NCBI GenBank assembly: GCA_009761415.1
Contig: QUOL01000004.1
Location: forward strand, 2,170,001 to 2,234,000
Direction: 5' to 3'
Length of the DNA stretch: 64,000 nucleotides
Origin: Sarcomyxa edulis
Lineage: Eukaryota > Basidiomycota > Agaricomycetes > Agaricales > Mycenaceae
The notes under the pieces are model-generated. The model worked only from the letters and a program-made list of their open reading frames with translations, had not been told where the DNA came from and did no database searches. Within the stretch, counting starts at the first letter, position 1. Every line of letters begins with the position of its first letter. Shown here piece by piece: positions 16,362-48,031 of the stretch. A program made the translations under genes and the position numbers.

Positions 16362-17932
16362 TTATCGGCCTAACATAGAGAGGACACGACGCCAAGGATC
16401 CTTTTTTTGGGCAGCTGGCCATGGAGTCACAAAGGTAGGGCCAGTAGGCCATGCCGAATCTTTGAGACCGCAATCACGGCTGCAATAGTCATATCCAGGA
16501 TTTTTTGGATTTCTTCGGCAATACTGTCCGATTCTTCATCAGTACACCTAATTGAATATCGAGGATACAGAAACACATTCTCACTTTGCACAAGTCTTGC
16601 AGGCCACAATCGCGGCTACAATAATCGTAACCTGGGTTTTTTGGATTCCTACGACAGTACTAAATAGTGCAACGCTCCGTCAGCACATTCTGTGGGGGAT
16701 GTTTGTGCACAAAAAATATGTATTCACCTTGCATAAATCTTTCTGACCGCAATCACGGCTGCAATAATCGAAGCCGAAATTTTTTGGATTCCTTCGACAA
16801 TACTGAACAATGAAGTGCTATAGTAGCGATCGGCGAGTGTAGAAGAAGTCTACTCACTTTGCACAATAGTGCGGCTGATGTTCCACAAGCGTGACTGCAG
16901 TATTGAAAGCCACTCAACTTGGGGTAGATGCGACACCACTGGTAAATGCAGAAGTGAGAGGATTAGTGTCGAGACAACTTGGGATCCCATGCTGATACTC
17001 ACTATGCAGAGTTGATTTAGCGGAGGCACTTGATACGAGATTTGATATTGGGCAGGCCGAGAGACTATTGCAGGTGTAAGAATCGAGAAATTCAGAGAAA
17101 GAGGAGAGTACGCACGTTTCTGAGGAGTGACTGGAGTGATAGGCGTGTGGAGACTGCTACCATCTGGATATGGGTTGGTTCCTGCGCCAGATAGGTCATA
17201 TCGAAGATGCATAGCACTTACTCTGCAATTTAGCTCGCAAGCGTTCCAACGCTTCTCCAAATTCATTCTGGCCGTCACCATTAGGGCCTATACCCCAGAA
17301 GGCATCTTTTTCACTATCCTAAAGGTGTGTCAGTTCATGGTTAAGGGGGAATGTCTCTGTATATTTACCTCAACGAGTTCGGCATCCCTAGTACCAAGTA
17401 ATTGGGCCTTTAGGTCAGGGTGTTGGTCAAACTTGTGCCATAATACTTCGTCCATCTAAGCTTGAGTTGGATTATCGAGGTATCTTCGGAAAAAGGAAGA
17501 ACACACCTTTGCAATCTTCACGTCGTACCAATCGCCGCGAGTATACGCACTTTGTTCGCGAGCTTTCAGGATTGCTTTTTTCGGACTTTCAGAGCATGTA
17601 CGTATCATTTCTGCGATCGTAGGATGGTACTTTTGAAACTGGTAGCGGTCAGCAGAAAAGGAAAGCAGAACAGGGACACGACATACTTTAAACGATTGAA
17701 ATAGATGTTCCGACGTTGGGTATCTCTTCCCCTTATAGTAAACAGGATGAGGCGAAAAGTTCGTGAACCCATAGTAAGGCTTGTTTTTATGATGGAACAA
17801 GATACGAGGACGGGAAGTACTAGTGTTTATCGCTGGATTTTGAACACTGCCAGTCCTGCCGGACGGTCGATAGGGAACGCCAGGATTATATGCATACCGC
17901 GCTGCGGGATCGTATGAAGCTCCCTGGTACAT
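16362..17932 (-). CDS. NADAR-domain protein 1 with four Cys-rich modules
   Basis: The NADAR fold starts at RPRILFHHKNKPYYGF, then NFSPHPVYYKGKRYPTSEHL and QSFK, continuing over four more exons to DAFWGIGPNGDG and LERLRAKL. All NADAR hallmark motifs are kept. NADAR (YbiA-like) enzymes are N-glycosidases; family members are reported to remove ADP-ribose from guanine. After a short Pro/Thr linker come four Cys modules, each about 30 residues and nearly one per exon: CQWC...YCSHACG, then three of the form CRRNPKN.G.DYCSRDCG. They probably bind zinc. The tail after the fourth module is short and basic. The start is the first in-frame ATG (17930-17932, MYQGASYDPAARYAY); the open frame upstream of it has no ATG. 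NADAR2 has the same architecture. Confidence 0.8.
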
Positions 17933-18609
17933 CTCGTATAAGTCTTCGAATACTGAGCGCAGAGCAAGGGAGTAGACAGTAGACGAAGTACCACGAATGA
18001 GGGGCTGGGTTTCTTTAAGCAATCGTCGATTATCATGATGGGATCGTTAGGATGATTCCTTGGCGATAAGAGATCATGATTTAGTGAGCTTATGGGAGAG
18101 CATACTACTAATAGGGTCATAGACGAGCCTCATGTTGATGTCGGTCGCCGTTTGAAAGTATTTCGACCATAAATACTTGAGCTACTTTTTGACATCTATT
18201 TGAGCTATCTGATTCCAATCAATGAGACTCGATATCAGGGAGTTGATAGATCTCACCTTTCGATATATAGAGCAGAGAGTTTGGAAGCTTCGAGATGAGA
18301 ATCGACAGGTCTGGGAGTATGTTGAGTGCAAATAAAGAACCGGGACCGCCAAGGCCCAAAGACGCGACGCGAGGTCACACATCATCTCACTGTGACAATG
18401 TAACGGTTCTCCAACGGGTTTGACCGTGACTCTTTGAGTCCTTGAACCAACCTTGAACCTTCCCTATGTATGAGACTCGACCCTCAGACGACCCGGACAT
18501 CTCAAAATCCACTGGAACTGACTTACGGGTGTTTGGCCCTAGATATGTTCCTCGGGGATCGTACAACCCCGACATGCCCTTCCGTAAAAAACCCTCACTG
18601 ACTGATACC
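17933..18609. other. intergenic
   Basis: Upstream region of NADAR gene 1. No gene recognised; the open frame at 18387-18668 lies at the edge of the inverted-repeat element and is not coding-like. Confidence 0.4.
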
Positions 18610-19035
18610 AGGCCCCGGGAAGCTCCACCAAGGGCTTGTCCGGCCAAACCTCCCAGATCAGGCCTCAAAAAGGCAAACTTTCGGGCTCAAATATGCAAAG
18701 TCGGACAGCCATGTAACGTAGTCACACCCTGTGACTCTGCCAAGAGCGTGACCTTTCTCGGCCAATATACTTTTTCGTCCAGTTTTCGCTCACTTCAGCT
18801 TCTCTTCGCGCCGGTCAGCACAAGTCCTCCCAGAAACGAGACTGACATCAAATTTGACCTTGAACCTCCTGCATTGGGCCAGGTGGGAGACCTTTGGCCC
18901 TCAAATATGCTAAATCGGACAGAGGTCAACAAAATTTGGCTTCAAATATGCAAACTCTGGACAAGGAAAATGCAAAATTTCGCCCTCAAATATGCTAAAA
19001 TCCGGACAAGCCCTTGGTGGAGCTTCCCGGGGCCT
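18610..19035. mobile_element. MITE-like element with 34-bp perfect inverted repeats
   Basis: 18610-18643 and 19002-19035 are exact reverse complements over 34 bp (AGGCCCCGGGAAGCTCCACC... on the left). Inside are at least four direct copies of TCAAATATGC(A/T)AA followed by GGACA (near 18690, 18899, 18943 and 18984). No transposase gene is present. No clear target duplication was found, so the true ends may lie slightly further out. The long frame at 18466-19107 is a by-product of the repeats. Confidence 0.75.
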
Positions 19036-19417
19036 CTGATACCCCCATGGAGAGCTGAAAAGCGCGTCCCATATGTCGGACAAGAAGCTCCAAGAAAAAC
19101 GTGTTGATGCTTGCCCTCACATGCGTAAATATCTGGAGGAACGGACCGTAGACCGGTCTAATCGATGTTCTGGCAGCGATATCGATGACTGAACGAATTT
19201 AGCAGCGATGATCCTATTCACCTTCTTGTCAATTGAAGTCCACGGAACGGGATGACTGCTCCGTCGTCGATGGGCATTAATCAGTATATACACTTAACTC
19301 TGCGAATTGTGCTGTGATCACGAATCTCTTATGGAGTACGCGCGCGATCCTGGCATGGTCAGGTTTGTGATCGATGTATCTACTGCTGGAAGTACATCAG
19401 GTATGTTCCTTCTTTAT

Positions 19418-20676
19418 CTACTTGGTATACATGATGATGTATACAGGGATAATAGCATCCGAATCTTCCACGAAGACAGGTTCTTCGGCAACTTTCTACA
19501 CTCAAGCATCAATATGTCGCATGATCATGTGTGCGATAATTATTTCTACGCACCGATTTCGCTTCGGACTGGGTCACGACATCGCACATAATCATCACAC
19601 GGTAAGGAGAAGAAGTGCACGATGTTGCGAATCGGTCTGCCAGGCTTGGGTTTTTGTAAGAGTAGATTCCATCTCCCCATCTGCACCAGTTCGTTCAATG
19701 ATAAATCATATTTAGGTTCTAGATATGTACTCACCTTCCGGTATTATATCTTTCGCCAAAAGCGAGTTCTTTGAACGACGTTTTAACGATCCTACATATG
19801 CCACACGACGGGAACTTGCACAAGGCTGCGTCTTTAACGCCCAAGTCGCAGATGCATTGCGAACTATGGAAAGTTTGGATCTGTGAAACAGATGCTATGC
19901 TCGATATCGTTTTCCTGGATGGATGTCATGAGCTTGCGTTCAAAAGACGGTGCTGGAATTGAGGTACCGAAACGCGTCTTGTCTGGCTCTCACATCGCGA
20001 GGTACGATGATCTCATAGACTTTGTGGATCATGGGTGGTCCGCTTGATGACTCCCATTCGAAGCTTACAGTCTCGCGGACTGTATTAGTGCGTATAAATT
20101 CAGCCTTTGATGATAGAAATTTCTAATGATGACCCACCATTTTTGAACGTTGTGCTGTTAGGATTGAGCTCCCTGATACGAGGCCCCATACTTGCCGGTT
20201 GCGCTCGGGAACGACGAGCGCATGCTAGACAGAGCTCACCCATCGTTGGAGGTTGCATGTTGCATTGATTACATCCCTTAACTTGGCCGATGCGAACAGC
20301 TTCTCTGAAATGTTGTTCGACGATTGTCTCTAGAACGTTCAATTGGTCACAGAAAACCTGTCTTACCTTCCATGTGTCTCTGAGCAAAAGCCTGCAAATG
20401 CTGCCTTGCCCGTTGCGCGACAGCTACTCAGTGCGCATGCCGTCGGTGTCGCTCCTTCGTTTCGTGCACAAGTCCTGCTGCAGTACGGATGTGTGCGACC
20501 GTTTTCGACGAACTTGGGCTTTTTTCCGCATATCTACGCACGGATTGTATTAAAAGCCTGCTGTCTAAGGCATCAATGGTCCTTGTGTGGCTTACCTCGC
20601 ACATATCGTTTTGATTTGGACTCGGAGGTTTCGCATGAGAACCCCAGTTTACGACTGACTTGACAATAGATGCCAT
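19418..20676 (-). CDS. PARP-type ADP-ribosyltransferase A with Cys-rich N-terminal modules
   Basis: Spliced from about seven exons, about 300 residues, start ATG 20676 (MASIVKSVVNWGSHAKPP). A first Cys module CEICGKKPKFVENGRTHPYC is followed by SRTCA. A second (CNQCNMQPPTMGELCLAC) occupies the place where PARP B has CLMC...FCSKAC. The catalytic part then matches PARPs B and C: HKVYEIIVP, CICDLGVKDAALCKFPSCGI, IVKTSF, GDGIYSYKNPSLADRFA, and a final strand DAIIPVYIIMYTK. The donor-site motif reads FHSSQ where B and C have HGT, and the glutamate near the C-terminus is offset by one residue. It may therefore have altered or no catalysis. It lies between NADAR1 and the MARVEL-like gene, in the same orientation. 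Confidence 0.72.
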
Positions 20677-20944
20677 TGCGTATGAATTATCTAGTTGAAC
20701 AAGATGATGAGAGGATGGACTTGAGAAACAAGGCGAGAAACGAAGCTTTTTTGACAAGCCACGCCTCATCCTCGTTGGTCGGCGAGGTAGTGGCGTGGTA
20801 AGCTAACAATATACTTTGTTGACCCAAATCCTTCCTGCCAATCTCGATATCATTCCTATTGGATAGGTGGACATATGTATGCGATCAAAACAAAGTCTTA
20901 TTGGAAACGAGCATATCTTGCCCCAAGTCTGCCACCCCCCATTA

Positions 20945-22137
20945 CTACGCCACTGAAATCGGACGAAGGACATTGCGGCTAGATTGCCAGGCCAGCCATA
21001 TAATAGTCATCATCCCTCCTGTCAGCGTGACACTATAAAGCAGTGAATGTTAGCAACATGCATACGGTGGCATCTCCTTCCTTATAGAGTTGAAAACATA
21101 CATTTCGAGAACGGAAAGAGCTTGAATAGAATGATGTAAGCGATCGGTGCATGCATACGAGTTCAATAGGGACAGAAAACACACCAAATAGAGTCTGTAT
21201 CTGCCCACAATAGACCAAACCAGAGCAAATGCCGTTTCCGATGAGACGTGGAAGGGCTAAATTGAGGATGGCAGCACCGAAGATCCAAAGGAACCATGTC
21301 GTTAGAATCCAGACGGCCTGAGTACCGATGGATGAAATGGGGTGCTTTGACCATGTGGGATGTAGGAATAGTAAAGTGTAGCTGCCTGCAGTTGCGACGG
21401 TCCAGCAGGCCGCGAAGCTTCAAGTGAATTATTAGGATGAGGAAGGGGGCAGTAGAAAAGAAGAACTACTCACAGAAGGAGCTCGGCTCCTTTACGCGTT
21501 TCCGTGTTGGGGAAGTTCTGATTGAACCGGTATTGAAGAAGCAGCCAACTGGCGGTAGCGATCTACAGAAATGGTCGGTCTTTACAAAGAACACAGTGAA
21601 ACGGTCCAGTCGTTACCTCAGCAAGACTACCGAAGACCATGAACGCATAAACACCTACAAAGAAAAAAGACCAACGGTCAAAAATCCGGAATGTCGATCA
21701 ATGTAAAACTCACCGGGAGCATATTGCTGCAAGCGAACTCCAGAAGATTTGTTCAGCGGTCTCGGGTGCCGTTGAGCATAACGGTACGACCAGAATAAGA
21801 GGCAGAAGTATAGCAAAGCGATCATCGGTGTGATGCAGGCAATAATGGTGGTGATTGTGCTCGAGAGATATCTTACTCTCTCTGAGTCCGAGGATGAGTC
21901 TGCGACCAGCGAGATAGAAACTTGGGCGGGCAAGGTCATGATCATAAGATAGCTACAACTTGAAGACGGTGAAGTTAGTCGCTAATTCTTCTATGGGGTA
22001 CAACGCGTCGCTCACCAGAAGATGGTAAACGGATTCTTTAGCTAATACTCCAAGAAAAGAATACAAAGAAGTATGGCCAGGAGTACGCTACCCGCACCTC
22101 CTTGAATCAGAGCTGGAGGATGCATGGACATTAACAT
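20945..22137 (-). CDS. MARVEL-like multi-pass membrane protein
   Basis: Several exons from ATG 22137 (MLMSMHPPALIQGGAGS) to the TAG at 20945-20947. Hydrophobic segments appear in the order LKNPFTIFCCSYLMIMTL, an Ile/Thr-rich helix with CLLFWSYRYAQRHPRP, VYAFMVFGSLAEIATASWLL, and after NTETRKGAELLL the paired helices AACWTVATAGSYTLLF and VWILTTWFLWIFGAAILNL. The protein ends in TGGMMTIIWLAWQ. The pattern with W-x3-T-W and a terminal helix fits a large Agaricomycete family of small MARVEL-like proteins. Its function is unknown. The first exon join (45-nt intron with donor GTACTC) is less certain. Confidence 0.6.
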
Positions 22138-22638
22138 GAGGCTAGCTACAGGACCTTCCGGAACAGTGTGCTGGATGAAAACCTCGAGGATCGGATGTTG
22201 AGCATGCATTGATCAATGTCTTCGTATGATTTGGCCTTGGCGACTGCAATACCTACTTACAATTCGGAAGTTGACTCCGGTCGTTTAGATTTTCGTGGCT
22301 GGACTCACTAGTTCCTCGAAGACACTAAGAGGAATTGAGTGGTCAAAAGCTCTACACATTGATCAGGGATTGAAACTTACTCCCCATCATCTTCTGTTCC
22401 GCACGGTGAGAAGAGCATTGTTAAGATCTTAACCGCACGAGACAGATCCACGTAACGCAAAACAACGAGGTCACCAAAACATGAATGTATTTTTGAAAGC
22501 ATGGTGCATATGTGCAACGTGCAAAAGTACACGCGAATCGAAAAAGTAGATCATAGGTTGTCAGCATCATAAACCACACCATACCACATCCTTGTCCCCC
22601 TCCGGAATCACAACCAAAACCTTGGCCCACGTTCACAA
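22138..22638. other. intergenic
   Basis: Between the MARVEL-like gene (start side) and the rpl4 stop. No gene is supported; the minus-strand open frame at 22421-22636 lacks family resemblance. Confidence 0.45.
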
Positions 22639-24045
<1,407 letters not shown>

Positions 24046-24548
24046 TGTGTTTTAAATCTTGAGGTCTTGAAGTCTTCAGCAACGGAGCCGGTCGGTTTGT
24101 CCTGTCCAAAGATTTAAGGTTTGCCATAACCACTCAGCGCTAGCCAAGCACCGTCAAATACAGGCACGTGACACCTACGCGAGCCTGACAGGCGCGTTCA
24201 TCGTCTGTCAGTCACGATGTCTTGCTCTTTGAGCTTGAAGCTTATCGCAGTCCGCCTGGTCTTCTCGTTCTCATCAAGTGAACCTGCGTCAGTTTCTGAT
24301 AACAGAACACAAATAGACTCCCGTGAGGCTTGCACGAGGCCGCGCCTTGCGCGGATATGGACCACTGGCAGGATATAGTACTCTGCACTTCGTGATCTCT
24401 GCTTGAGGTCATTCTTCTCCTCGACACAGCTAACTCGAGATAACTCAACGGGGCCCTGATTTTTTTCTGTCTCCACAATTCTATTCCACTTACTTCACAA
24501 CTTCCCTCCTCTCGTGCGAATCGTTCACCGTCTGTGGGCTTCTGCGAC

Positions 24549-26012
24549 ATGTGCAACCAGAGCAGACCAACCACTATGCATGGTATCCAGGTGGATACCT
24601 CTTCACTGAATAGTACTAGTAATCAAAACCGTCAGATGGGCAGGACCTATGAGAATCAAACACCGACGACCAACAACAGCAGCCGACCTCGAATATTATT
24701 CTATCATAAAGACAAGCCTTATTACGAATTCGCCAATTTTTCTCCGCATCCCGTTTACTACAACAGTAAAAGATACCCCACGTCAGAACATCTGTTCCAA
24801 TCATTCAAAGTACGCCCTAATCCCTTTCAAGTTGGTTGTCGTGCTGACTATCGCTCAGTTCCAAAAACAGTATCCCACAATTGCAGAAATCATACGTACA
24901 TGCTCCGAGAGACCTAGAGAGGCTTTCTCGTTGGCACGTCAATATAAGCCATACATCCGGCCTGACTGGCACAGCATAAAGATCGCAAAGGTACGTCATT
25001 CTCACTTTCTCCCAGTGGCTTCTCCCCGATTTACTTGCCACCCACTATAACATAGATGGACGAGACGTTATGGCACAAGTTTGACCAACACCCCGACTTG
25101 AAGGCACAATTACTTGCAACTGGAAATGCCGAACTCGTTGAGGTGACATTCGGATATGATTCTTACTGCGTATCGGTGATTTGACTTGCTCGTAAGTAGG
25201 ACTCTGACAAGGACGCATTCTGGGGTATAGGCCCGAATGGCGATGGCCAGAATAGGCTTGGAAAGGCATTGGAACGATTGAGAGCTAAATTACAGAGTAA
25301 GCAATATCCTATACCGTTCTGAATATGTGTGTTGTGATCCTGATATTTGTTCAGAGAACGGTGCTAGTGTTTCCAACACGCCTGCTACACCTGTCACGCC
25401 TCACTCATGTATGTACTCGCTTTCTTTATCCTGGGTCCTCTGACTCAGCGTTGCTTGAGCAGTTCAATACCCACCATCACACCATGCCACTGCTTTCAGC
25501 CAACTCTGTAGTGTGCGTATATTGCCCCAGTATTCGTTTCGACCTTGACGTCCTCGTTTCCTTCGTCGTCAGTACTGCCACTCCATGCCGAAACGCGATG
25601 GCCATCAATACTGCAGTTACACGTGCGGAAAAGCAGCTAAGAGCATGTGTAAGGTGAGTCACGCTTTCTCTTCGCATTCATTGTCTTCTTCTTGAGCACT
25701 GTACTCTACATGTAGCATTGCAGCGTGAATCCGAGAAACCCGGGGTTTGATTATTGTAGTCGTACTTGTGGTCAACAAGATTTATGCAACGTGAGTGGAG
25801 ACATCTATATAACTCTGCTTGACATGGGCGTACTGACGGAGCATCGGGTCATTCAGTATTGCGGAACGAAGCCGAAACGACTTGGATTTGACTATTGCAG
25901 TCGTGATTGCGGTCGCGAAGACTTGGCGTTAACGGCTGGCACCGGCGTCAGAGCTGCACCTGCAAACCTGACGGGTGGTCAACGTCGTTACAGCTCCGTG
26001 TTGGGTTTCTGA
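24549..26012 (+). CDS. NADAR-domain protein 2 with three Cys-rich modules
   Basis: Start ATG 24549 (MCNQSRPTTMHGIQVDTS); the apparent frame start 15 bases earlier is GTG. The NADAR domain opens with RPRILFYHKDKPYYEF, NFSPHPVYYNSKRYPTSEHL and QSFK, then continues in further exons to DAFWGIGPNGDGQNRLGKAL. A linker (NTPATPVTPH) matches that of NADAR1. Three Cys modules follow, each beginning near an exon border: QYCHSMPKRDGHQYCSYTCG, then NPRNPGFDYCSRTCG, then YCGTKPKRLGFDYCSRDCG. The tail is GGQRRYSSVLGF and the stop is at 26010-26012. One residue differs from the other copies in the opening motif (EFANFSP instead of GFTNFSP). Convergent with PARP B, with 249 bp between the stops. Confidence 0.82.
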
Positions 26013-26261
26013 ACGGCACAAATGTCTGATGAAAAACAGGTCAATCTCGCGAGCCCGTTCCCCCACTATGCAAGCTTGTCCGATGCAATCTTCGAGGTAA
26101 ATATATTTAGATAGTGTGATATGTATACAATACATTCTTGTATCATCTCTCCGTTTAGGATATTGTTCGGTGAGGTGCTTAGACGGTCCCCGGAATCATT
26201 ATCCGAGTCCAAGCTCATCATTTCATAGAAGGTCATACACACGGGGTACATAAACTTAAAT

Positions 26262-28104
26262 CTATGGCTCGTACATTACGAGGAAGGACGGCCTTATCGC
26301 GTCATTCGTGTAAACGACCAACTCGTCGTAGTTTAAACTCCCACCCCTTTCAGCAAGTACCTGATGCACGAGAGCTCAGCCGCTACTATACAAGACAAGA
26401 GAGAGAGGGAAACATACCGAGTCATATCCAGGAGGTGGAGCGGTCAAAGTCGTACAGTCTTGAAGCATCTTGTAACCTTTCCCCACAATGACTTTATTCA
26501 GGAGCATTGCTTTCAGATTAGAGTGACAGTCGTTATGAGAATAGTCGTTTGACCTTGAAGACGAAAAAGGTCAGTAAGGTATGGGGTGAATTGGCAATGA
26601 TTCTACACACTTGGATGCTGTTGAGGAGGTATAAATTCCGCGTCCAAATCTATAAACGAATGTAAGCGCACGGTGGCCACTTCGTACGACAATGCCAATA
26701 CGGACCTTCCCCATTTAGTTTTCTTGCCGAATTGATTCAAGTCGAAAGAGGTCCGGATAATGGAGCACAACGAGCAAGTTGTCGAAGAGCAGAATTGAGT
26801 ATGACCTTTATCTCCAAGATTGCACTCCCTGTGTGTACCGTGCCACCGGCGATTCTCGTTTCCAGCTGATCTTCCAGCAGCTACGAATTGTCCGCGGGCT
26901 TCTACAGCTGCCCTGGAGGGACCTCAATTGGGTTCGCCCCGGTGATAATTCATGGAAACATACCGATACGCTTCATAATTAGCCAGAGAGGCCTGGGGAG
27001 CCATAATCTTGTAAACACGTTTCACGGGAGGACAACTGGACCCAGAGTGCCTCCATGACGCTTTGAACTGATCGGCCACTGAGATTTAAATTTAGTAGAT
27101 TGGAATATTCGGACCGGGTCAAGTAACTCACCACTCTTGAAAGTAACATGCCCAGCTGGTACTTCCAAAATCATAGGTCCTGCCTTCTCTGCCTGATCAG
27201 TGCACGCCTTGCTACAGAAATGCGACTTGGTTTGCTTCGGCGCTTGGCGACACATGAGACATATTGTCTCTCCGAGACTAGCTATATCATTAGGATGGGT
27301 ATGCATATTTGAGAACGTTTGACGACATACGTCTTATGAGCCAGGGAACAATATTCTCCAACGGTCCCATCTGCATTGGTGTGAGCTGGCTTCTGGCATC
27401 CAGGTGCTTGACAAGTATCTAGATGTGTGTCGCACATTAGTATAGGGTACGTACCACGATTTGACAGTCTTCGTACTTGTGGCATTGGTTCCAGAACCAG
27501 TGGCATGACTCCCTTTCCTTTGAGGAGTAGTCATATGCTTCGCACAAGCTTTGCTGCAGAAGGGATGAGTACGAGTGCCATCGTGCCACTTTGGGCGAAC
27601 GTGGCAGAACTAGATGTATACGCTCAGCGAAGCTCGAGGAGTGTAACACAAAGGACCTACATCACAATTTCCGGCCGAACCTCCAGAGGATCCATTAGAT
27701 TTGGACTTGATCTTGTTAGCGCATGCTTTGCCGCAAAATGGATGGGTCTTGGTGCCGTCGAAATATTTGGGACGAAGGTGGCAGCTCTGTAGAAATGTGT
27801 TAAGGTCGTGAATATGAAATATGGGAGACGAAAGACTCACATCACATAGAGTAGAAGAAGTATTCACGGGAGGGCTTGTGGACGACATTTGAAGTGGAGG
27901 ATTGGTGTGAGAGGAAGACGCGTTGGGAATATTTACTGGAGCCGAGGGAGTTGGTGCCGCGGAAGCAGGTATCGGCGCTGCTGGAGTCGAAACTGCCACA
28001 CTTGGTGCAGACGCAGGAGGAGAGACTGGTTGCTGAGGACTGGAGAACGTTGGATACTGCGAAGCCACACTGGCGAGGAAAGATAAAATAGGCAGTGCAG
28101 ACAT
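26262..28104 (-). CDS. PARP-type ADP-ribosyltransferase B with four Cys-rich modules
   Basis: Start ATG 28104 (MSALPILSFLASVASQYP), then an Ala/Pro/Ser-rich linker and four Cys modules in successive exons: SCHLRPKYFDGTKTHPFCGK with ACA, LCHVRPKWHDGTRTHPFCSK with ACA, CQAPGCQKP...YCSLAHK, and CLMCRQAPKQTKSHFCSKAC. The catalytic domain follows: KRVYKIMAP, GNENRRWHGT (NAD-binding His), CNLGDKGHTQFCSSTTCSLC, IIRTSFDLNQFG, RFGRGIYTSSTASK (second NAD contact, Tyr), AMLLNKVIVGKGY, and NYDELVVYTNDAIRPSFLVM (catalytic Glu). All three H-Y-E positions are present, so it is predicted active. An in-frame upstream ATG at 28206 is possible. Convergent with NADAR2. Confidence 0.82.
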
Positions 28105-28756
28105 AATAATAACGCTATATGTTGCTCTCGTCGGGCTTGAAAATGGGTTTATGGTGGTTCCGAGGGATAATGTGACCTTTATACAAAGGGACGGTTTTGA
28201 TAACATGCCCTTTTAGCGGCACCCACGGTGAAGGAACGAGGATCGTGCATGTTTTTCATTTTCCCCTACCTATCCGCCCAGAAGCCAGGACCTTCTGGTA
28301 CACACCTTTCTAGACGGTCGAGTGTTACGGACGGGCATCACACAGAAGGTGAGTTTCTCGTATAACGTTGGCAAGAAAGACATGCAGGAAATCAAAGAGT
28401 CCCAAGACTAATTGCACGCTTTGAAGTCGTGGACGGGTGAAAGGCAGTTTTCGAATACATATGTATCAGGACGCGTTTGGCACTATACCCGGATACGTGT
28501 GGAGTCTTCACGCAATACGCAGGAAGATGATAATGTCGTGGGCATCTGTACCCCAGAATACTTAGAAGGCTATAGCATCCAACATGAAATACGCACTCTC
28601 GCAAGATCTGAAGCCTCGTCAACGTTGTGGATATATTCACTATGCTTGTGTACCGCGTTGTTGTCGAACAGGGTTTGCCGGTTAATGTATGGGTCGACAT
28701 CACAGAAAACAAGAATTGAGAATTGAGTATATCAGATAACCACGAAAAGAGATCCA
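28105..28756. other. intergenic
   Basis: Promoter side of PARP B and 3' flank of PARP C. Overlapping open frames at 28392-28760 on both strands show no family resemblance. Confidence 0.45.
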
Positions 28757-29881
28757 TCAAGATGCTAACGGGGTTTTGAATAGCCTCACAACCAGTGCAG
28801 AAACTTTTGAGATAGGAACCTCCTTAGGCTCTCCATAGACGATGAGATAGGCCGGCCGTATAGCGTCGTTGTTGTAAACAACAGTTTCCTTATAATTGAG
28901 ATCTGCACCGACCTCTCCGATGACCTGGAAGGGGAGGGCGCAGGGGTATTCAGGTGATTGAATGGCTCGGAAAGGGTCGCACTTACGGAATGATATCCAG
29001 GAGGAGGTTCGGTCAGATGAGTGGCATTCGTACGCCGTTTGTGGGGCTTGCCGACGACAACACGGTTTAAAAGGAGAACCCGCAAAGGAAGGGCCTTATT
29101 TCCGTTGAGACAATAATCGTCCGCCTCTATCGAGTCAGCCTGATGAGCAATGCGACGAAAATTTGAAACATGAATCCGTACTGCTGGAACACGAAGTCAC
29201 ATATATGCCTGAACCAAACCTACATGTAATGCGAGGTCTAAGCACGAAGGACGAGCTCTGATTCACGATGCACATACCGTCGGAATTTGTGCTTCGTTCC
29301 TGTGCAACATCAGATTTCAAGACAGCACATGTCGAGTGGCGAGACACTAACCACATTTGCTGACATCGAAGGAAGTCCTGAGGATCATGCAAAGAGAGCA
29401 TTCGGGCAAAGAACATAGTCGTACATCGTCGATGTCCTCTCCTAAGTTGCACAATCTGTTGGTTCCATGGAAAAGGAAGCGCTCGTTCCCAGGTCCCTTC
29501 GATGAGTTTACGGAGGGAGATGCTTGTACACTCGCACTTGAGCATTTGCAGGTCAGTGGATGTTTCAGATGACTTAGAAGGAATGCATCATTACCGATAT
29601 CTCAGGTACGGTTGAAGAGTACCCTCAGGTGACAGGACTTTGAAAATGGCGTGCACGTATGGCTTAGGCTTCTCTGGGTGCTTCCAATGCTTGAGAAATC
29701 GACTCTCGACTGCAATAGCGATTCAGATTATCATGAATTCTACTTGGATGAGACACTTGTAGTACGCACCTTGGGCAAAAGTGGGGTCTTTACGCCTCAG
29801 ACGAAGGAGACGATTCCATCTGCCAGCAGAAAAGTTGTTAGGATTCTCGATACTGAATTCGTCGATCTCGTCGTTCGCCAT
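28757..29881 (-). CDS. compact PARP-type ADP-ribosyltransferase C (catalytic domain only)
   Basis: About 259 residues from roughly eight exons; start ATG 29881 (MANDEIDEFSIENPNNFS). It has no Cys modules at the N-terminus. Instead it opens with RLLRLRRKDPTFAQVESRFL and KPYVHAIFKVL. Catalytic motifs are GNERFLFHGTNRLCNLGED (His), CSLPECSLCMILRTSFDVSK, RRFGSGIYVTSCSSKADDYC (Tyr), RVLLLNRVVVGK, EPPPGYHSV and NYKETVVYNNDAIRPAYLIV (Glu). The full H-Y-E triad is kept. Every intron needed has GT-AG borders and falls at positions comparable with PARP B. It faces NADAR3 head to head across 709 bp, so the pair could share a promoter region. Confidence 0.82.
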
Positions 29882-30590
29882 CGCGTCTCAAGAATAGGTC
29901 AGTTGATCATGGATACTTCTGCCGAGTTTATCATATATCCCGTCGACGCATTGTTTGACGCAGGCATCGGCTGCATTGGATGAGAGGCATCCTTTGAGGG
30001 AGTACATGCTAATCGTGCCGAGGCTCAAGCGTTTCAAAACATCGTGGGTCCCAAGCACTGGTCATGGAAGCAGAATTTTTGGGCCGCTTCTCCGCATATC
30101 CCTGCGAACGTGATTCGAGTTAACCGGAAAAGCATACTTGGAGATCACAAATTCTTGCAATGCGTGGAGAACAGGAGGACGTTGATCATGTTCAAATAGT
30201 GACGGCCGGAGAAAAGACTCGGGATTCCGACTGGCCTCGGACTTCGAACTTTGAAGGTCCGATTACATTTAGCTCCAGCCTCCGAGTTGTCCTCTTTCTT
30301 CCCTTAAGTTCGGTGGTACCGTCCGGGTCGTCCTGCTCTCGTCAAACGCTCAGGAATCTGTTTCCTGATATGCCCCACACATATTGTTCAATACTTGTGG
30401 AACTTCTGGCCTGGCCACGAGGAATCCTGAACGTATATGCGAGGCAACTGCGTGTAATCCAGGACCTGCACGAAGCATATAAATCCCGAGCGGAATAAGT
30501 CATTGTCACCTTTTTCATTTGTGGAACCAGCTGCAGCTCTCATTACATATATCTCTATCTTTCGGTTGAACAACTCTTTCTTCATCTGCC
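29882..30590. promoter_or_regulatory. shared divergent intergenic region between PARP C and NADAR3
   Basis: 709 bp between two oppositely oriented starts. No gene is recognised inside; the frame at 30160-30498 has no resemblance to known proteins. No specific operator was identified. It is listed because a writer/eraser pair transcribed from one region would be co-regulated. Confidence 0.4.
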
Positions 30591-31624
30591 ATGGCCTCCC
30601 GGTCTCAAAAACCGATCACTGTTGTAACCTCCCCGTACGGTGAAACTACTGTATCTCCACCGACTCCTACAGCATCGAAACCAGGTGTCTTTCGTATCGA
30701 AGACCACCGTCGTACTGTTTACTCCGATGTTCCCTTGGATTCCCAAACAATCAATGAGCTCTTGAAGCTCACCGATATACCTGAAATATCATCTACATCG
30801 ACTGAATTCAACGTACGACGATTAGAGGATGGATCTCTCCATATTGTCGATCCATCTCAGCCCAGACGTGCCAGTGGAAGTCAACGTCGACCTTCCAGGA
30901 CTGATGCCACTCTGTCTCCTAACATCAACTCGTCTCCACCCAATACATCTCCTCGCGAGTCTCCTAGAGCTTCACCTCGGTCCCCTCGTACAACGTTCCG
31001 TCCAAAGATCTTGTTCTATCATAGACACGATCCTCATTACGGATTCACCAACTTCTCCCCACATCCTGTCGTCTACAAAGGGAAGAAATACCCTACGTCT
31101 GAGCATCTGTTCCAATCGTTCAAAGTACGTCGATGCATGATCTCGCTGTATCTGAAAGATTGGTTCTGACTCCATCACCGCAGTTTCATGGCCATCGCCC
31201 AAATCTAGCAGAACATATACGCACATGCTCAGAGAGGCCGAGCGTTGCGTTTTCTGAAGCTCGTCGTTTCCAACCCGAAGTGCGCCCTGATTGGATGAAA
31301 ATAAACGTCGAAAAGGTATATTCTTTCTTATTCTCTTTTGTCAGCTTAAAGAGAAACTGACTTCTCGTGTAAAATTTTAGATGGAGGAGACACTGGCCCT
31401 CAAATTTGATCAGCACGCTGATCTCAAGGAGGAGTTGCTTAATACTGGCGACGCCGAATTAGTCGAGGTAAGATAAAATTGAACTTCAATCAACTCGTAC
31501 GCTGACATGATTGTAGGATTCTGACAAGGACGCATTCTGGGGCATAGGTGCCGACCGACGAGGTCGTAACGAGCTCGGAAAGGCCTTGGAACGCTTGAGG
31601 GCCAAACTGCGCGACTCTCAATAG
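30591..31624 (+). CDS. NADAR-domain protein 3 (no Cys modules)
   Basis: Four exons, 30591-31124, 31184-31315, 31381-31467 and 31517-31624, giving 286 residues. The N-terminal ~140 residues are Ser/Pro-rich and disordered. The NADAR domain then runs from RPKILFYHRHDPHYGFTN through NFSPHPVVYKGKKYPTSEHL, HIRTCSERPSVAFSEARRF, VRPDWMKINVEKMEETLAL, LNTGDAELVEDSDKDAFWGI and LGKALERLRAKL. The protein stops right after the domain (RDSQ), where NADAR1 and 2 add a linker and Cys modules. Intron positions match those of NADAR1 and 2, so the three are paralogues. Predicted role: hydrolysis of an N-linked ADP-ribose product. Confidence 0.87.
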
Positions 31625-32450: not shown

Positions 32451-33409
32451 TCAAGCCACAGGGTATGGCGCGTATTTCCAGTATCTGGTGAAACATGCAT
32501 GAGCGCTCAACAAGATCAGACTGAGATTTTGCGACATACCCAGAGTATCTGGCGGCGAATACGTATGGTATCAATACTTTCCTGAGAATCCAGGGCATAG
32601 GCGGCCAAATATCCTTGTACTCGGGAGGGGTATGACTGAAGAACAAAATATCAATATGATACCAGATTAAAGAGAGAGTTTGCGTACCTCCGCATGTACG
32701 GAACAACCATGAAAGGGTTACCATGGGCTTTCGCATGTTTCTCGAGAGCAGCAATGATATTCATGAGAGTTTTCGCTTCGAACACCTTCAAGTGTTCTGG
32801 TGCAAGGTGTTCGACTTCTTCGTCTAAATGGGTATACTAGAGACACATTGACCGTCGGTTTGGTGACAATCAACAGAACTTTGAGAAATCATGTGTACGC
32901 ACAAGTGGGTCGCGAAGCGCTGTCATTTTGGCTTTCATAGTTGGGCCATCGAACTGAGTGGTATCAGCAGCGGCAGCGCGGATGTACGAGAGGAGATCAT
33001 CGAGGCCGGTGTGAATAACCTCGTGCTGTTCGCGTTCCTTGGACATGTCAATTTTTGTCTGAAGTACAGGGAAGACTGCCTCCTCTACATGTGGAAATAT
33101 GGACAGCGTCCAGTCAGAATTGATTCTATTGTGAGATGCATACGACGACTGACCTTCAGCATCATGATGGCCAGCAATCGAGTCAGCCCATGCTTCGCAA
33201 TATCCCAAGAAGTTTTTGAGGTCGTGCGTAGGAGGGTTGTCCAACAAAGGCAAAATAACGTCGTAACCAAGTTTGAACGTCTCGTGCGCTATGACAAGTC
33301 TGAGGTTTGTTTCTTGAAGCTTCAGAAAGACATTTCAATACTCACCACGAATCATGTAGTATTGCAAGATCTCGTATTGGTCGGTGGGGGGTGTTGCTTG
33401 TGTCACCAT
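32451..33409 (-). CDS. hemerythrin-like (HHE cation-binding) domain protein
   Basis: Start ATG 33409 (MVTQATPPTDQYEILQYYMI), stop TGA 32451-32453 after YWKYAPYPVA. The four-helix HHE pattern is clear: EAWADSIAGHHDAE, IFPHVEEAVFPVLQTKID, EREQHEVIHTGLDDLLSYI, and a later exon with PLxxHxxEE-like residues before VFEAKTLMNIIAALEKHAKA. The C-terminal part (PPMPWILRKVLIPYVFAARY) is typical of Agaricomycete members. Such proteins bind a di-iron centre through His and Glu and may act in oxygen, NO or iron handling. No signal peptide is seen. Confidence 0.8.
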
Positions 33410-40271: not shown

Positions 40272-40467
40272 CGTACAGGCATCAAGGTGCGAAATTGATG
40301 GGTACTCAATCCATTCCTGTTTCGATCCGATTGCAGTTTTAGACTTTGTCACATCTGTACAGTGCAATACGAGTCCGTGTATCAGGTCTCCATATGTTGC
40401 GATGGACGGCGTCCGTTTGTTCAATGAATAAAGGGATGGGTGAGATCTCATTTTTCCCCAAGTCCAA

Positions 40468-43400
40468 ATGGCCATCTCTGATGTTGATACGCTTCCTCAG
40501 ACACTACCTGATCTGCTCATCGCTCAAGCTCGCTCGAGTAATGAAGCTCGAATCACCTTCCTCGACGCGGACGGTAATCCATCGAAAACGCTGTCCTACC
40601 AAGAACTCTACGACGACGCCTTCATATTGGCTCGACGCCTGATCGCGTCAGGATTGACGCGTTCTAACATCATACTTTCGAGCTTTCCCGACCATGAAAG
40701 TCATATTCGCCTCTTCTGGGCTTGCTGCCTATCAGGGATCCCATTCTGCCCCCTTCCAGCTCTTCACCCTGACCCAACCCGTCAGGCCATGCTTTTTAAT
40801 CACCTCCAGACTCTATTCCACCAACCGACACTCATCTCTCGATCTGATACGATACAGGCTGTACACGCCCTTGTCCCAGAGTTTCTGGCCAAGACGCTTG
40901 ATGACTTGACAGAGGGAACCGATGACCTTTCTGGTATCTTTCCCGCGCGCGTTCCCTCGTCCGACGATACAGTATGCTTTATGCTTACTTCGGGTTCCAC
41001 TGGAAATTCCAAGGCGGTCCAGTTAAGACACTCGAATCTCCTCAGCAGCATACGTGGTAAAAAACGTCACCATGGAACTACTTCCAACTCGAGATTCCTC
41101 AACTGGATTGCTTTCGACCACGTTGCCTGTGTCTCTGAGTCTCATCTCCAAGCGCTAGAAGTCAATGCTTCGTGAGTAGCGAACGTGTTTCTATTTTGAG
41201 AGATCTCTGCTAACAATCATCATAGACAATGGCATATAGCGCCTTCTGCAATCATCAGAAACCCTCGAGCCCTCCTCGAGCTGACCAGCTCCCTCAAAAT
41301 CACTTATACCTTCAGTCCTAACTTCCTCATCGCCCACCTCCTGCGCGACGTCTCTAATACGCCTATCGATCAACTTGATCTCTCCTCTCTCCGAGCATTC
41401 ATTTCTGGGGGCGAATCCGTCCCCATGACCACTGCCATCGCATTTGCAGATCTATTAGAGCGATTCGGCGCTCCTAGAGATACACTAAGAGCGGGTTTCG
41501 GAATGAGCGAGACCGGCGCAGGGTCCATTTATGACACTCGTCCTATCCCCGAGCGTCTGGCTCCAGATCAGCCAACCTATCTATCCCTCGGCAAGTGTTG
41601 TCCAGGAATCGAGATGCGAATTGTAGACTTGACTACTGGCAACGTTGTCCCAGCACGCCAAGTGGGCCATCTCCAAATCAAAGGGCCTACCGTTTTCAGA
41701 GGTTATTACGGCAATGCGCGCGCCACGAAGGATTCGTTCACCGAAGACGGATGGTTTATAACTGGTGATCTCGCGAACCTCGACGACGAGGGAAACCTTT
41801 TCATGGTGGGACGAGATAACGATTCCATCAATATCAATGGTGTCAAATATCTACCTCAGGATGTTGTTCGTTACATCGAGGATGCCAAGGTTGAAGGTGT
41901 GGTGTATGCACACATCTACGTCTGTCCTATGCGTCTAGATAATGCAGACACGGAGACATACGGCGTGTTTTATCAACACGATATTGCCGTCGAGGATGCC
42001 TTGGACGCAACGCAGAAACGTGCAATAAATGCGACCAATCGCATGATCAAAAACCTCTGCACCGTCTTCTGCTCTCAAGGGCCCCACGTGGTTCTCCCAC
42101 TTCCCCGAGCGTCTTTCGTTAGAACTGCGTTGGGAAAAGTGTCCCAGGCGCAATTAGTGAAAGCCTTTTTGCAGGGCAATTATAAAGGCATTCAAGACAC
42201 TCTTGAACTTCAGGAACCCACTTTGAACGATGCGAATTCCGTTTCCGACCTCGTCACCCCCGTCGAACAAATCGTTGCGGAGGCTGTCGCTTCTGTGTTC
42301 TCCACCATCAATCCCACTCTACTTCGTCGTTCTGATAACATTTTCGACCTTGGCGCGTCGTCGATGCATCTTCTTCGTCTAAAGCATGTTCTACAAGACC
42401 GCTTGTCCCTTCCCGATATCCCCACTATTGATATGCTCAAACGTCCAGAGATTGGCGCGCTGTGCGACTATCTAGCCGAGATGGTGCTTCGAGGAGACTC
42501 TGTTCTTCCCGTTGAATATCAACCTCTCGTATGCTTCAACAATTCTGGTACGAAGCCTCCTTTGTTCATGGTACACCCAGGGGTTGGCGAAGTGCTTGTA
42601 TTCGTCAACCTAGCAAGAGTGCTCTCTGATGATCGGCCCGTATACGCACTCCGTGCAAGGGGTTTTGACAACGGCGACACCACGTTTGATACATTTGACG
42701 ACATGACGCAGTGCTACACAGAGGCTATCGAGAAAGCCTGTCCTAACGGGCCGTACTATCTTGCTGGATACAGCTTCGGTGCTGCTGTCGCGTTCGAGAT
42801 TGGGAAGGTATTGGAGGCCAAAGGAAAACAAGTCGCGTTCATTGGTATACTCAACTTACCTCCAGTCATTCGGTTCCGTATGTTGGAACTCTCATGGTCC
42901 GAAGTCTTGCTGAATATCGGGATGTTCCTTTCCCTCATAACTCCTTCAGCCCTCGATCCATTGCGGAAGCAGCTCGTCAAGGACTTCCCAGAAATGCAGC
43001 TATTGGACACGCTACCCTCCGATCCTGTCGGTCCCATTGAGTGGCTGTTCAAGCAGAGCAATCAAAAGCGTCTCCAGGAACTTGACCTCAATCTCGACGC
43101 GTTTGTGCGATGGGTCACAGTCGCGTACAATATCAATCGTACCGGGAGGACATTCGAGCCGAAGGGGCGAGTCATTGGAGCGTTAACAACTGTTTTCTGC
43201 GCAATTCCTTTGCCTTCCATGGGTACGCGTGAGGAGTATAAGCGGGATAGGCTTTCAGCTTGGGCGGGATTCAGCGGGAAAAGGTTCGAGATGGTAGATG
43301 TCGATGGAGAGCATTACACGATGTTATCCGACGAGCACGTTGTCAGTTTTGCTTCGCATTTGAGAGCAGCGCTAGGTCGGGCTGAAGCTAGTCTACCATC

Positions 43401-44763
43401 CCCTGCTCCCGTCGCACCGACTTTGAAAAAGGATTTCGAAGCCGTACCTATTATCGATTTCTCTCTCTCCAAGACAAATCCTGGGGCTTACCTCGATCAG
43501 CTCAAGTTTGCGTTAGAGGATGTTGGTTTCGGGGTAAGTGTTTTCATGATTCAGACTGAGAACTCTTTTGATTGACATTGGCTCGTAGGTTTTTGTCAAC
43601 GTACCAGGATTCGAGGATGGATTCCAAAAGGAGATCTTTGCTCAAGCGCAGCAACTGTTCAGTAAACCTCAAGAATGGAAAGACCGCCTGGGTACTGCAA
43701 ATTCGCCTGCTCTAAGAGGTTATTTCCGGGGAGATAGTGGTTCTCACAAGGTATTATTCCAATTACACGGATCTCAAGCATCATAATGACCGTTCAACCG
43801 TAGGCCTATGCGGAAGCAATTCGATTTGGCGCGGAAAGGCCTGCTCCAGGTGCTCTCGATGATCCTGACGTTCCATTTTGGCTCAAACTACATGAAGGTA
43901 TGCATCTGCGCGATCCCTGCAATCCATGCACTTAACGATCAACCATTCCTCAGGTCCTAATCAGTGGCCCAATGAGCGTGATCTCCCAGGCTTCAGGAAG
44001 AACATGGAGATACTCTTCGAGCGCTACAGACTCCTCAATCTGGATCTGAACAAGCACATCTGCGAACTCCTCGATATAACCAATGCCACCCTTGACGACT
44101 TCTTCCCAAACAATATCGAATTCAACAGTGCCATCTGGCATTACTTCCCTGTTACTCCCGAGATCGTTGCAGAAGCGAAGAATGGCTTCGTTACAGGAAT
44201 GCATGAACATCGCGATCCCAGCACGTTTGTGACATGCTTGATCCAAAACAGGCCAGGTCTGCAGGTCCAAAATCACCGGGGTAACTGGGTCGACATTCCG
44301 TTGGTTGAGGGAGGTGTCGTCTGCAATATCGGTTTGTCTGGTTCTCTCTATAGGTCCTTCCATCGAATGCTAACATTTACATGATAGGTATGCAACTCAT
44401 GAAACTCACGGGCGGTAAACTTGTCGCGACCACCCATCGGGTGAATACACTCAAAATTGACAAGGACCGGTTCGTTCCTTTCCTCTACTTGCTGTTGTTT
44501 CGTTCTCAACCAGGTATTTTAGATTCACTATTCCTTATGTCTTGACGACGAAGCTTGAGAGGCCTGTTATCCCCTTACCTCAATTCTCATCACCAGACTC
44601 GGCCAAATCTCACGTCATCCCCAATCCAAAAATCCAGAAACTGATGTCCATCGAGGATCCGCTGATTCGTAGCGGCTATGCTAGGCTTACACTCTTCCCG
44701 GCTGCGACGCAGAAACTCTACCCGAAGGAATTTGCTCAAGCAGAAGAGATGGGAATTGTCTAG
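40468..44763 (+). CDS. NRPS-like A-T-TE synthetase fused to a 2-oxoglutarate/Fe(II) dioxygenase
   Basis: Seven exons, 40468-41171, 41226-43533, 43589-43750, 43804-43897, 43954-44331, 44388-44469 and 44523-44763; 1322 residues in one frame. Adenylation domain: LTSGSTGNSKAVQLRHSN, GMSETGAGS, GDLANLDDEGNLFMVGRD and a late Lys in RTALGKVSQ. Carrier domain: FDLGASSMHLL, with Ser at about 612 for phosphopantetheine. Thioesterase: GYSFGAA (Ser ~750) and GEHYTML (His ~929). A-T-TE is the layout of aryl-pyruvate-condensing quinone synthetases such as atromentin synthetase. From about residue 970 a second enzyme begins (VPIIDFSL). It has the H-x-D site in HEHRDPSTF, a distal His in ATTHRVN and the oxoglutarate Arg in RFTIPY, like isopenicillin-N-synthase-type dioxygenases. 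I do not recall a characterised protein with this fusion. It may oxidise the released quinone or furanone. Confidence 0.88.
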
Positions 44764-45031
44764 CGTCAGTGTTGAACGTGTTACTTATCTATTCTTATTA
44801 TGTATGGTGTCTCTATGTATAGTGCTACAAATTTGTCTGTTTATCCTTCGAAATATCTAGCCAGAAGACAGTATATTTTCGTTATTGGTGCCGTAGTCAT
44901 TGCCAAATCACTTGGTAGGTTTTGAGAAACACGTTAGGATCATACTTCGGTTCTCCCTGGACTGTCTCTGGGCGCTTGAGAATACTTCGCATCTTGGGAA
45001 AGGTGACATTAAATAACATATATTGTCTATA

Positions 45032-47031: not shown

Positions 47032-48031
47032 TCAATCGAGAGGCTTGCTCATCGCTTCGTCCCTACATGCCTTCCCACAAAAGTAACTGTTTCCGCTCTG
47101 CGGTAACGTCAGGCACATAATACACGGCTGTGCGAGTCCTGAGGTTACTGCCTCTCTGTGAACGAAGAATCAAGGTCACGGGTCAGGGTTTTGAAGACAA
47201 AAGGGAAGCTGAAGACGCACTCGCGATGCCTCATGGAGCAATAATCACTTGACTGATACCCATTCGAGTCGATGTGTACGGGTTGCCCGCATCCCGGAAT
47301 AATGCATTCCAAGACAGCTGGAGACCCGTGGTGAGCTGTTGAGTTCAATGGAGCTCCAGCATTCGACGATAGCGGTGTTGAATTTGTTGCGAGGCCGATG
47401 AAAGGGTTATTGACGGGAACTCTGGATGCCTGCGTCGTAGGGGGTTGCGAGGTAGGAGCAGAGTTGTTGACCACAGAGTTCAACAAGACTTGTGCTTGGG
47501 GCGGCAGATGTTGAGCTAGCTCTGAAAGACGAAAGTCTTGTCAAATGCTAGGAACATTGTCACTCAATTGCACACTTACGCGCTAATACAACAGGGATCT
47601 GGGGTGCCTTAGGTTGCGATTGTTTCTGCGAAGGCCCGGGAAGGCTAGTGCCTTTTGTAGACGGGCCTTTGCTTTTCGGAGGAGGCGCTGATTGAGGCGG
47701 TAGGATGCCGCTCTGCGTCTTGGTGCCGGCTAACCCAGCACAGGTCTTTCCACAATAGTCGAAAGTCCCGTGTTTTTGCTTCTTATGACAATACTGTAGG
47801 TAGAAGCCCATGAAACATCATGCAAGAGGATACTCGCGTGAGACCGACCTTGCACAGAGAGGCGGCTTGAGTGGCACATGTTTTACTGCAGTACTGGTAA
47901 GTCCCAAACTTGGATTTCTGGCCGCAATACTGATGCAGAGAACAGATCAGTGCAATTTGACCACAACGAGAAGCCTGTATACGTACGTCACAGAGCTGGA
48001 GAGCTTGTTGAGTTTGAGTACGAGTGGACAT
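47032..48031 (-). CDS. Cys-module protein related to PARP B but lacking the catalytic domain
   Basis: Start ATG 48031 (MSTRTQTQQALQLCD). Modules in order: CDYCGQKSKFGTYQYCSKTC, CKYCHKKQKHGTFDYCGKTC, a Pro/Ser/Lys linker, an Asn/Ser/Thr-rich linker, CIIPGCGQPV...YCSMRHRE, and CIMCLTLPQSGNSYFCGKAC. The protein ends RDEAMSKPLD. The order and the distinctive third module (C-x4-C ... YCS-x-x-H) match PARP B, but the stop falls just where PARP B passes into its ADP-ribosyltransferase domain. The first two modules resemble those of the NADAR proteins. It could be a truncated PARP or a stand-alone adaptor binding the same ligand. It lies 15 kb from the main cluster. Confidence 0.68.

What the first reader, a model, noticed from the sequence alone, without database searches (positions are those of the whole stretch)
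16362..31624. Interleaved NADAR and PARP genes: a candidate ADP-ribosylation write/erase locus
Three NADAR genes (16362-17932, 24549-26012, 30591-31624) and three PARP-type genes (19418-20676, 26262-28104, 28757-29881) lie within 15 kb. Two PARPs keep the full H-Y-E set. PARPs attach ADP-ribose, and NADAR proteins are reported to remove it from guanine. Placing both activities together in several copies suggests a system acting on nucleic acid or free bases, perhaps in defence against viruses, mobile elements or nonself nuclei. Only the gene content is seen; the system itself is inference.
Basis: partly seen in the sequence, partly recalled or inferred. Interest (0 to 1): 0.88.

Follow-up and report, generated by a model that had tools for sequence, protein, structure and literature searches.

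The report
Mushroom ADP-ribose write-erase gene neighbourhood
A mushroom chromosome carries, side by side, enzymes predicted to attach ADP-ribose (PARPs) and enzymes of the kind that removes it (NADARs), several sharing the same small zinc-finger-like motif; the grouping recurs in many related mushrooms, but whether the enzymes really work as a pair is not yet shown.

Summary
All six genes splice into intact GT-AG models at exactly the stated coordinates. The three NADARs score 123-132 bits (cut-off 35.1); PARPs B and C pass Pfam, A is recognised only by a relatives' profile. B and C keep H-Y-E.

Beyond the finding: (1) NADAR1, NADAR2, PARP-A and PARP-B share one small cysteine finger that Pfam does not recognise. 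A PARP-derived profile finds it in both NADARs and 34 of 120 listed NADAR homologues, 0 of 120 RPL4 proteins, 0 of 270 shuffles. (2) A missed seventh gene at 47032-48031 is finger-only and matches the tail of an Agrocybe NADAR protein. (3) The 13 best of 14 finger hits in this 35.6-Mb genome lie in this window. (4) In 30 of 37 named species listed for both, a NADAR and a PARP sit on the same contig (expected about 1).

The control weakens the link: RPL4, a housekeeping gene inside the cluster, stays with PARP in 15 of 21 species, so conserved linkage alone is not specific.

Best reading: an undescribed Agaricomycete ADP-ribosylation writer/eraser neighbourhood with shared targeting fingers, analogous to bacterial DarT1-NADAR and YarT-YbiA. 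Guanine chemistry and defence remain inference.

The parts
16362..17932 (-). NADAR1: 10 exons, 360 aa; YbiA-type NADAR domain plus a C-terminal tail of four small cysteine fingers, about one repeat unit per exon
   Evidence: gene model; NADAR 122.7 bits; finger profile E 8.5e-14; four fingers located (single-finger E 2.4e-6 to 0.0018)
19418..20676 (-). PARP-A: 7 exons, 303 aa; N-terminal finger and diverged PARP-like domain (H and Y kept, HSS for HGT, E out of register)
   Evidence: finger E 1.6e-12; PARP-clade profile E 1.4e-16; below the Pfam cut-off
22639..23947 (-). RPL4 (uL4 ribosomal protein), housekeeping neighbour used as control; first exon not modelled
   Evidence: model; PF00573 93.2 bits for its main exon; best homologue 93% identical
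24549..26012 (+). NADAR2: 9 exons, 331 aa; NADAR plus three fingers; sister of NADAR1 (99/94 support)
   Evidence: 131.7 bits; finger E 2.9e-11; tree
26262..28104 (-). PARP-B: 10 exons, 450 aa; three fingers, an EsV-1-7-like C-x4-C...C...H element and a PARP catalytic domain with H-Y-E
   Evidence: (51.4 bits)
28757..29881 (-). PARP-C: 7 exons, 259 aa; PARP catalytic domain with H-Y-E, no finger
   Evidence: (59.0 bits); orthologue annotated in one protein with PARP-B in two species
29882..30590 (.). 709-bp space between divergently transcribed PARP-C and NADAR3; possible shared promoter (inference)
   Evidence: coordinates of the models
30591..31624 (+). NADAR3: 4 exons, 286 aa; N-terminal extension plus NADAR domain, no finger
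   Evidence: 126.8 bits; groups with Amanita, 95/89
47032..48031 (-). [not shown]
   Evidence: finger hits; model; in a comparison with three sequences, 42% identity and 2e-53 to P0046, 4e-14 to the NADAR1 tail, 1e-12 to PARP-B; filters off

Best explanation
The locus is an ancient Agaricomycete gene neighbourhood for reversible ADP-ribosylation. Shown: intact PARP catalytic domains (two with H-Y-E) beside three YbiA-family NADARs with the published catalytic residues; a common finger in members of both families and in a stand-alone finger protein; conservation of NADAR-PARP linkage in at least four orders. Inferred: the PARPs are writers, the NADARs erasers, and the shared finger brings both to the same target; PARP-C and NADAR3, divergently transcribed 709 bp apart, are a co-regulated core pair; NADAR1, NADAR2 and PARP-A are a lineage-specific expansion (the tree supports this for NADAR1 and 2 only). 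By established YbiA/NADAR chemistry the NADARs would break N-glycosidic ADP-ribose bonds, guanine-linked being the reported kind; whether these PARPs make such a bond is unknown.
Against: RPL4 keeps its place about as often (15 of 21 with PARP, 9 of 12 with NADAR), so the linkage may be inherited gene order. NADAR3 and PARP-C have no finger. Adjacent genes can swap exons without working together. None of the 240 listed homologues shows both Pfam domains (120 listed of 613 and of 275). No activity, expression or binding data. ADP-ribosylation of guanine bases by a PARP14/tankyrase-type enzyme is not reported in the passages I saw. The P0123 model is poor over the catalytic domain (mean pLDDT 63.8).
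Confidence: 0.45

Rival explanations
1. Inherited gene order without joint function. An ancestral Agaricomycete block around RPL4 happened to hold a PARP and a NADAR; local tandem duplication multiplied them and local exon shuffling spread the finger. The NADARs do metabolite repair (riboflavin intermediates) or general clean-up and the PARPs modify proteins independently.
For: RPL4 stays with PARP in 15 of 21 and with NADAR in 9 of 12 species; 15 of 21 is indistinguishable from NADAR-PARP 30 of 37 (Fisher p=0.52); in 8 of 10 species with all three listed they share one contig. NADAR1 and NADAR2 are sisters. Finger exons in NADAR1 are tandem copies. YbiA-family enzymes act on riboflavin intermediates (PMC11543638).
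Against: The finger was kept in both enzyme families and was found nowhere else in the genome below E 0.4 (lower bound). Fingered NADARs recur in separate lineages, which needs repeated chance.
Confidence: 0.38
2. A eukaryotic toxin-antitoxin-like or antiviral defence module: the PARPs ADP-ribosylate invading nucleic acid or host RNA on infection and the NADARs protect self, like DarT1-NADAR or YarT-YbiA.
For: Bacterial ART-NADAR pairs act as toxin-antitoxin systems (PMC11543638, PMC11125620; passages). The PARP-B catalytic domain resembles PARP14/10/12 by fold and ZAP by sequence. Local duplications are seen.
Against: Slow, syntenic inheritance across orders is unlike a mobile or fast-evolving defence island. 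No defence-specific domain appeared among the six neighbouring window ORFs scanned, with Pfam only; no defence library was run. No toxicity data.
Confidence: 0.1
3. NADARs guard against foreign guanine-ADP-ribosylating enzymes from competitors, and the PARPs are a separate protein-modifying stress system targeted by the same finger.
For: NADARs reverse guanosine ADP-ribosylation made by ScARP in RNA (PMC11833690, passages) and in DNA (PMC11125620, passages). Several NADAR copies would fit dosage or compartment needs (inference).
Against: Does not explain the shared finger or the linkage.
Confidence: 0.07

Closest known systems
DarT1-NADAR (DarTG1) of bacteria
   Same: An ADP-ribosyltransferase gene next to a NADAR gene; NADAR catalytic E and K kept
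   Different: DarT is described as highly diverged from PARPs (PMC11833690 passage), here PF00644 enzymes, two with H-Y-E; NADAR here is YbiA-type (E at the E125 position, where DarT1-linked NADARs have D); eukaryotic, multicopy, with shared fingers; no toxin-antitoxin behaviour shown
YarT-YbiA of myxobacteria (PMC11125620, passages only)
   Same: YbiA-family NADAR linked to an ART
   Different: YarT is a small ART reported as a toxin; no fingers mentioned in the passages seen
Stand-alone YbiA-family NADARs (E. coli YbiA 2b3w, P. nicotianae NADAR 8bau)
   Same: Fold match TM 0.83 and 0.68; same catalytic residues
   Different: Here joined to a finger tail in two of three copies and linked to PARPs
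PARP14/PARP10/PARP15 and tankyrase catalytic domains
   Different: No macro, WWE, SAM or ankyrin domain found by Pfam; N-terminal fungal fingers instead; cysteine-rich stretch between H and Y
Fungal PARPs of Clades 1 and 6 in the 2010 survey (PMC2964712, abstract and passages)
   Same: That survey reports Clade 1 and Clade 6 PARPs in some Agaricomycotina, so mushroom PARPs as such are known; the C1 gene looks like Clade 1
   Different: Whether PARP-A, B and C belong to Clade 6 was not tested; no NADAR or shared finger is mentioned in the passages seen

Membership tests
NADAR superfamily (PF08719) | Score above the curated Pfam cut-off over the whole domain | tested here: met
   122.7, 131.7 and 126.8 bits against 35.1, profile 2-163 of 163
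NADAR superfamily, YbiA subfamily | E at the position of P. nicotianae E125, plus E43 and K50 | tested here: met
   Residues from PMC11543638 section 12 mapped onto EH.....K and LVE....D..W in all three gene models; 118 of 120 listed homologues
NADAR superfamily | Hydrolysis of guanine-linked ADP-ribose | not testable with these tools
   Needs purified protein
PARP (PF00644) | Score above the curated cut-off | tested here: met
   PARP-B 51.4 and PARP-C 59.0 bits against 26.7. PARP-A, 14.1 bits, does not meet it
PARP (ARTD) with H-Y-E triad | H, Y and E at the canonical positions | tested here: met
   PARP-B and PARP-C; H 124, Y 125, E 122 of 125 aligned rows. PARP-A has E out of register
Canonical PARP1/2 (WGR and regulatory domains) | WGR and PARP regulatory domains | tested here: not met
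   Pfam finds only PARP catalytic (and a sub-threshold EsV-1-7 match) in A-C; a PARP1/2-like gene sits on contig C1 (read by eye)
DarT-NADAR toxin-antitoxin system | DarT-type ART toxin | tested here: not met
   The ART partners match PF00644 and the PARP fold
DarT-NADAR toxin-antitoxin system | ART toxic when expressed, NADAR rescues | not testable with these tools
   Needs growth assays
Clade 6 PARPs (PMC2964712) | Placement in the Clade 6 tree | not tested
   No Clade 6 reference sequences were compared
EsV-1-7 motif (PF19114) | Score above the curated cut-off | tested here: not met
   PARP-B residues 177-199, 18.9 bits against 25

The most novel reading that the evidence does not exclude
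Mushrooms carry a dedicated eukaryotic system of reversible base ADP-ribosylation: finger-PARPs write ADP-ribose on guanine (RNA, DNA or free nucleotides), NADARs with the same fingers erase it, and a finger-only protein reads or competes at the same sites.
Probability: 0.22. Interest if true: 0.88.

Novelty: new variant of a known kind. Interest (0 to 1): 0.62.

Why it matters
According to PMC11125620 (passage) the physiological roles of eukaryotic NADARs are unclear. A chromosomal partner PARP that shares a targeting domain gives mushroom NADARs a concrete candidate substrate-maker, and makes the question testable in tractable species; Coprinopsis cinerea has a PARP-B homologue (P0172), its NADARs were not among the rows listed.

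Tried and rejected
Fungal NADAR-PARP fusion: none of the 240 homologues listed shows both Pfam domains (lists capped at 120 of 613 and 120 of 275). P0121 and P0126 look like long fusions but are PARP-C and PARP-B orthologues annotated as one protein, useful as evidence of tandem adjacency, perhaps a gene-prediction artefact. The same caveat applies to the NADAR-Z protein P0046.

Linkage as proof of function: rejected as sole evidence after the RPL4 control.

A finger half-pattern over the genome (305 matches against 251 in the reversed control) was not informative. The finger set was first collected with one motif for both families, which is circular; I replaced that by scanning whole NADAR proteins with the PARP-only profile, with RPL4 and shuffled controls. 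A first regular expression for the PARP glutamate gave 88 of 120; it was too strict and was replaced by an alignment column. A bacterial promoter scan of the PARP-C/NADAR3 gap found nothing and does not apply to fungi. Foldseek gave the fingers no convincing known fold (only a MYND domain at E 2.0).

For one search I kept only RPL4 rows (25 of 120) whose species occur in the other tables. 'Same contig' is inferred from equal longest-contig length within one species; no cross-species length coincidence occurred. The 7 misses of 37: Collybia nuda, Dendrothele bispora, Ephemerocybe angulata and Lentinula raphanica (the latter two with locus-tag prefixes of different assemblies), Mycena capillaripes, M. 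epipterygia, M. leptocephala. The 6 RPL4-PARP misses of 21: Lentinula detonsa, L. raphanica (both possibly different assemblies), Leucoagaricus, Marasmius oreades, Mycena kentingensis, Plicaturopsis. Genome size of 50 Mb was assumed; with 35.6 Mb the expectation is 1.3. Three of nine species with short (<200 kb) NADAR contigs are misses.
Full report
What is there. The window lies on contig C34 of a 35.6-Mb genome in 40 contigs; its closest named protein relatives are Agaricomycetes. Six genes were modelled by hand from the sequence. All introns are GT-AG, 40-68 bp, all frames close, and both ends of all six genes agree with the finding. From low to high coordinate: NADAR1 (-), PARP-A (-), a small membrane-protein gene (from ORF reading), RPL4 (-), NADAR2 (+), PARP-B (-), PARP-C (-), NADAR3 (+). 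PARP-C and NADAR3 are divergent with 709 bp between them.

Catalytic state of the NADARs. PMC11543638 section 12 (read) names E43, K50, E125, D130 and W133 among the residues of the P. nicotianae enzyme that contact ADP-ribose, E125 marking the YbiA subfamily. All three NADARs here carry EH.....K and LVE....D..W. So do 118 of 120 listed homologues. The only other NADAR found in the genome, on contig C12, reads ATH for SEH and IIY for LVE, so both glutamates are lost. Every catalytically complete NADAR found in this genome is therefore in this cluster.

The shared finger. NADAR1 ends in four and NADAR2 in three copies of a small motif, C-x2-C-x3-P-x6-YC-x3-C, about one repeat unit per exon. PARP-A has one and PARP-B three of the same kind. 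A profile made only from PARP fingers finds NADAR1 (8.5e-14), NADAR2 (2.9e-11) and 34 of 120 listed NADAR homologues, but 0 of 120 RPL4 proteins and 0 of 270 shuffled NADARs at E<1e-3; single NADAR1 fingers score 2.4e-6 to 0.0018. No Pfam family reaches its cut-off there. NADAR3 and PARP-C do not have it. In the genome a composite finger probe finds 14 places at E up to 10; the 13 best lie in this window and the last (E 0.47) is likely chance (the tool scores only its best candidates). Two of the 13 reveal a seventh gene, Z, at 47032-48031 (-), 254 aa, with fingers and no catalytic domain. It is 42% identical to the second half of Agrocybe chaxingu P0046, whose first half is a NADAR; its first two fingers resemble the NADAR1 tail (49% over 49 residues) and its end resembles PARP-B. 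Metal binding by the finger is inferred from the cysteines. A NADAR tree puts NADAR1 and NADAR2 together (99/94), NADAR3 with Amanita (95/89), and fingered copies of Amylocystis and Agrocybe beside finger-less ones (95/90, 99/90). NADAR-finger joining or loss thus happened more than once; most forks of that tree are unresolved (24 of 40 open).

Linkage in other fungi. No genomic context could be fetched for fungi, but the homologue tables give the contig length of each protein. The species include Agaricales (Amanita), Boletales (Rhizopogon), Jaapiales (Jaapia) and Polyporales (Abortiporus). Six of the nine species with NADAR contigs under 200 kb are linked. Locus tags are close: Amanita phalloides 007645 (PARP) and 007648 (NADAR), Stygiomarasmius 010021 and 010019, Jaapia 40054 and 40058. 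Two species annotate PARP-C and PARP-B orthologues as one protein, so that tandem looks conserved too; the tree separates a PARP-B clade from PARP-C and its two orthologues (94/80).

The control. RPL4 lies inside the cluster and has no expected connection. It is on the PARP contig in 15 of 21 species and on the NADAR contig in 9 of 12, and all three share a contig in 8 of 10. Amanita phalloides RPL4 has tag 007641 and Candolleomyces eurysporus has RPL4 g4583 next to PARP g4584. 15 of 21 is not different from 30 of 37 (Fisher p=0.52). The whole block is old and stable, so linkage by itself does not show that NADAR and PARP work together. The stronger argument is the shared finger and its confinement to this cluster, although local exon exchange between neighbours could also produce it.

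How it most likely works. Shown: gene identities, catalytic residues, folds, shared finger, conserved neighbourhood. Established for the families: PARPs transfer ADP-ribose; NADARs, including YbiA-type ones, remove it from guanine in DNA and RNA (PMC11543638, PMC11125620 and PMC11833690, passages) and YbiA-type ones act on riboflavin intermediates. Inferred: the fingers target writer and eraser to a common partner. I give 0.45 to a functional writer/eraser couple, 0.38 to inherited gene order without joint function, and less to defence or guarding roles.

Known or new. Bacterial ART-NADAR pairs are known (DarT1-NADAR; YarT-YbiA, PMC11125620, passages). The searches for NADAR with ADP-ribosyl, with PARP and fungi, with DUF1768/YbiA/fungal, with PARP/Basidiomycota/gene cluster, and for PARP in Agaricomycetes or mushrooms (listings only, open-licence papers only) showed no paper on a fungal NADAR-PARP neighbourhood or this finger. 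The 2010 survey of PARPs (PMC2964712, abstract and passages) reports Clade 1 and Clade 6 PARPs in some Agaricomycotina, so mushroom PARPs themselves are not new; whether the finger-PARPs are Clade 6 was not tested. PMC9503650 (passages) surveys NADARs in viruses, and PMC12477816 (passages) reports NADAR domains in Ectocarpus retrotransposons; neither passage set describes this. I rate it a new variant of a known kind.

Noticed in passing
18610-19035: Perfect 34-bp inverted repeats 358 bp apart with internal short repeats, between NADAR1 and PARP-A: looks like a small non-autonomous transposon.
   Followed up: partly
40444-46543: NRPS-like ORFs with AMP-binding, carrier and thioesterase domains, an oxygenase-like ORF (by eye) and an O-methyltransferase ORF: likely a small secondary-metabolite cluster between NADAR3 and gene Z.
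   Followed up: partly
L056 4472-5670 (contig C12): Fourth NADAR found in the genome has lost both catalytic glutamates (SEH to ATH, LVE to IIY), so it looks like a pseudo-enzyme.
   Followed up: yes
Proteins P0001, P0002, P0003, P0005, P0006, P0009, P0010: Mycena, Cyathus and Crucibulum proteins carry two NADAR domains in one chain (by eye); the second copies of P0001, P0005 and P0009 are long branches in the tree.
   Followed up: partly
30591-31000 and P0015, P0020, P0036, P0044, P0069, P0082: NADAR3-type proteins share a conserved N-terminal stretch (such as TITIVTSP...YRIEERKRTVYV) with no named domain (by eye).
   Followed up: no
[not shown]
   Followed up: no
32870-33334: Hemerythrin-like exon just beyond NADAR3, below the Pfam cut-off at 18.8 bits.
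   Followed up: no
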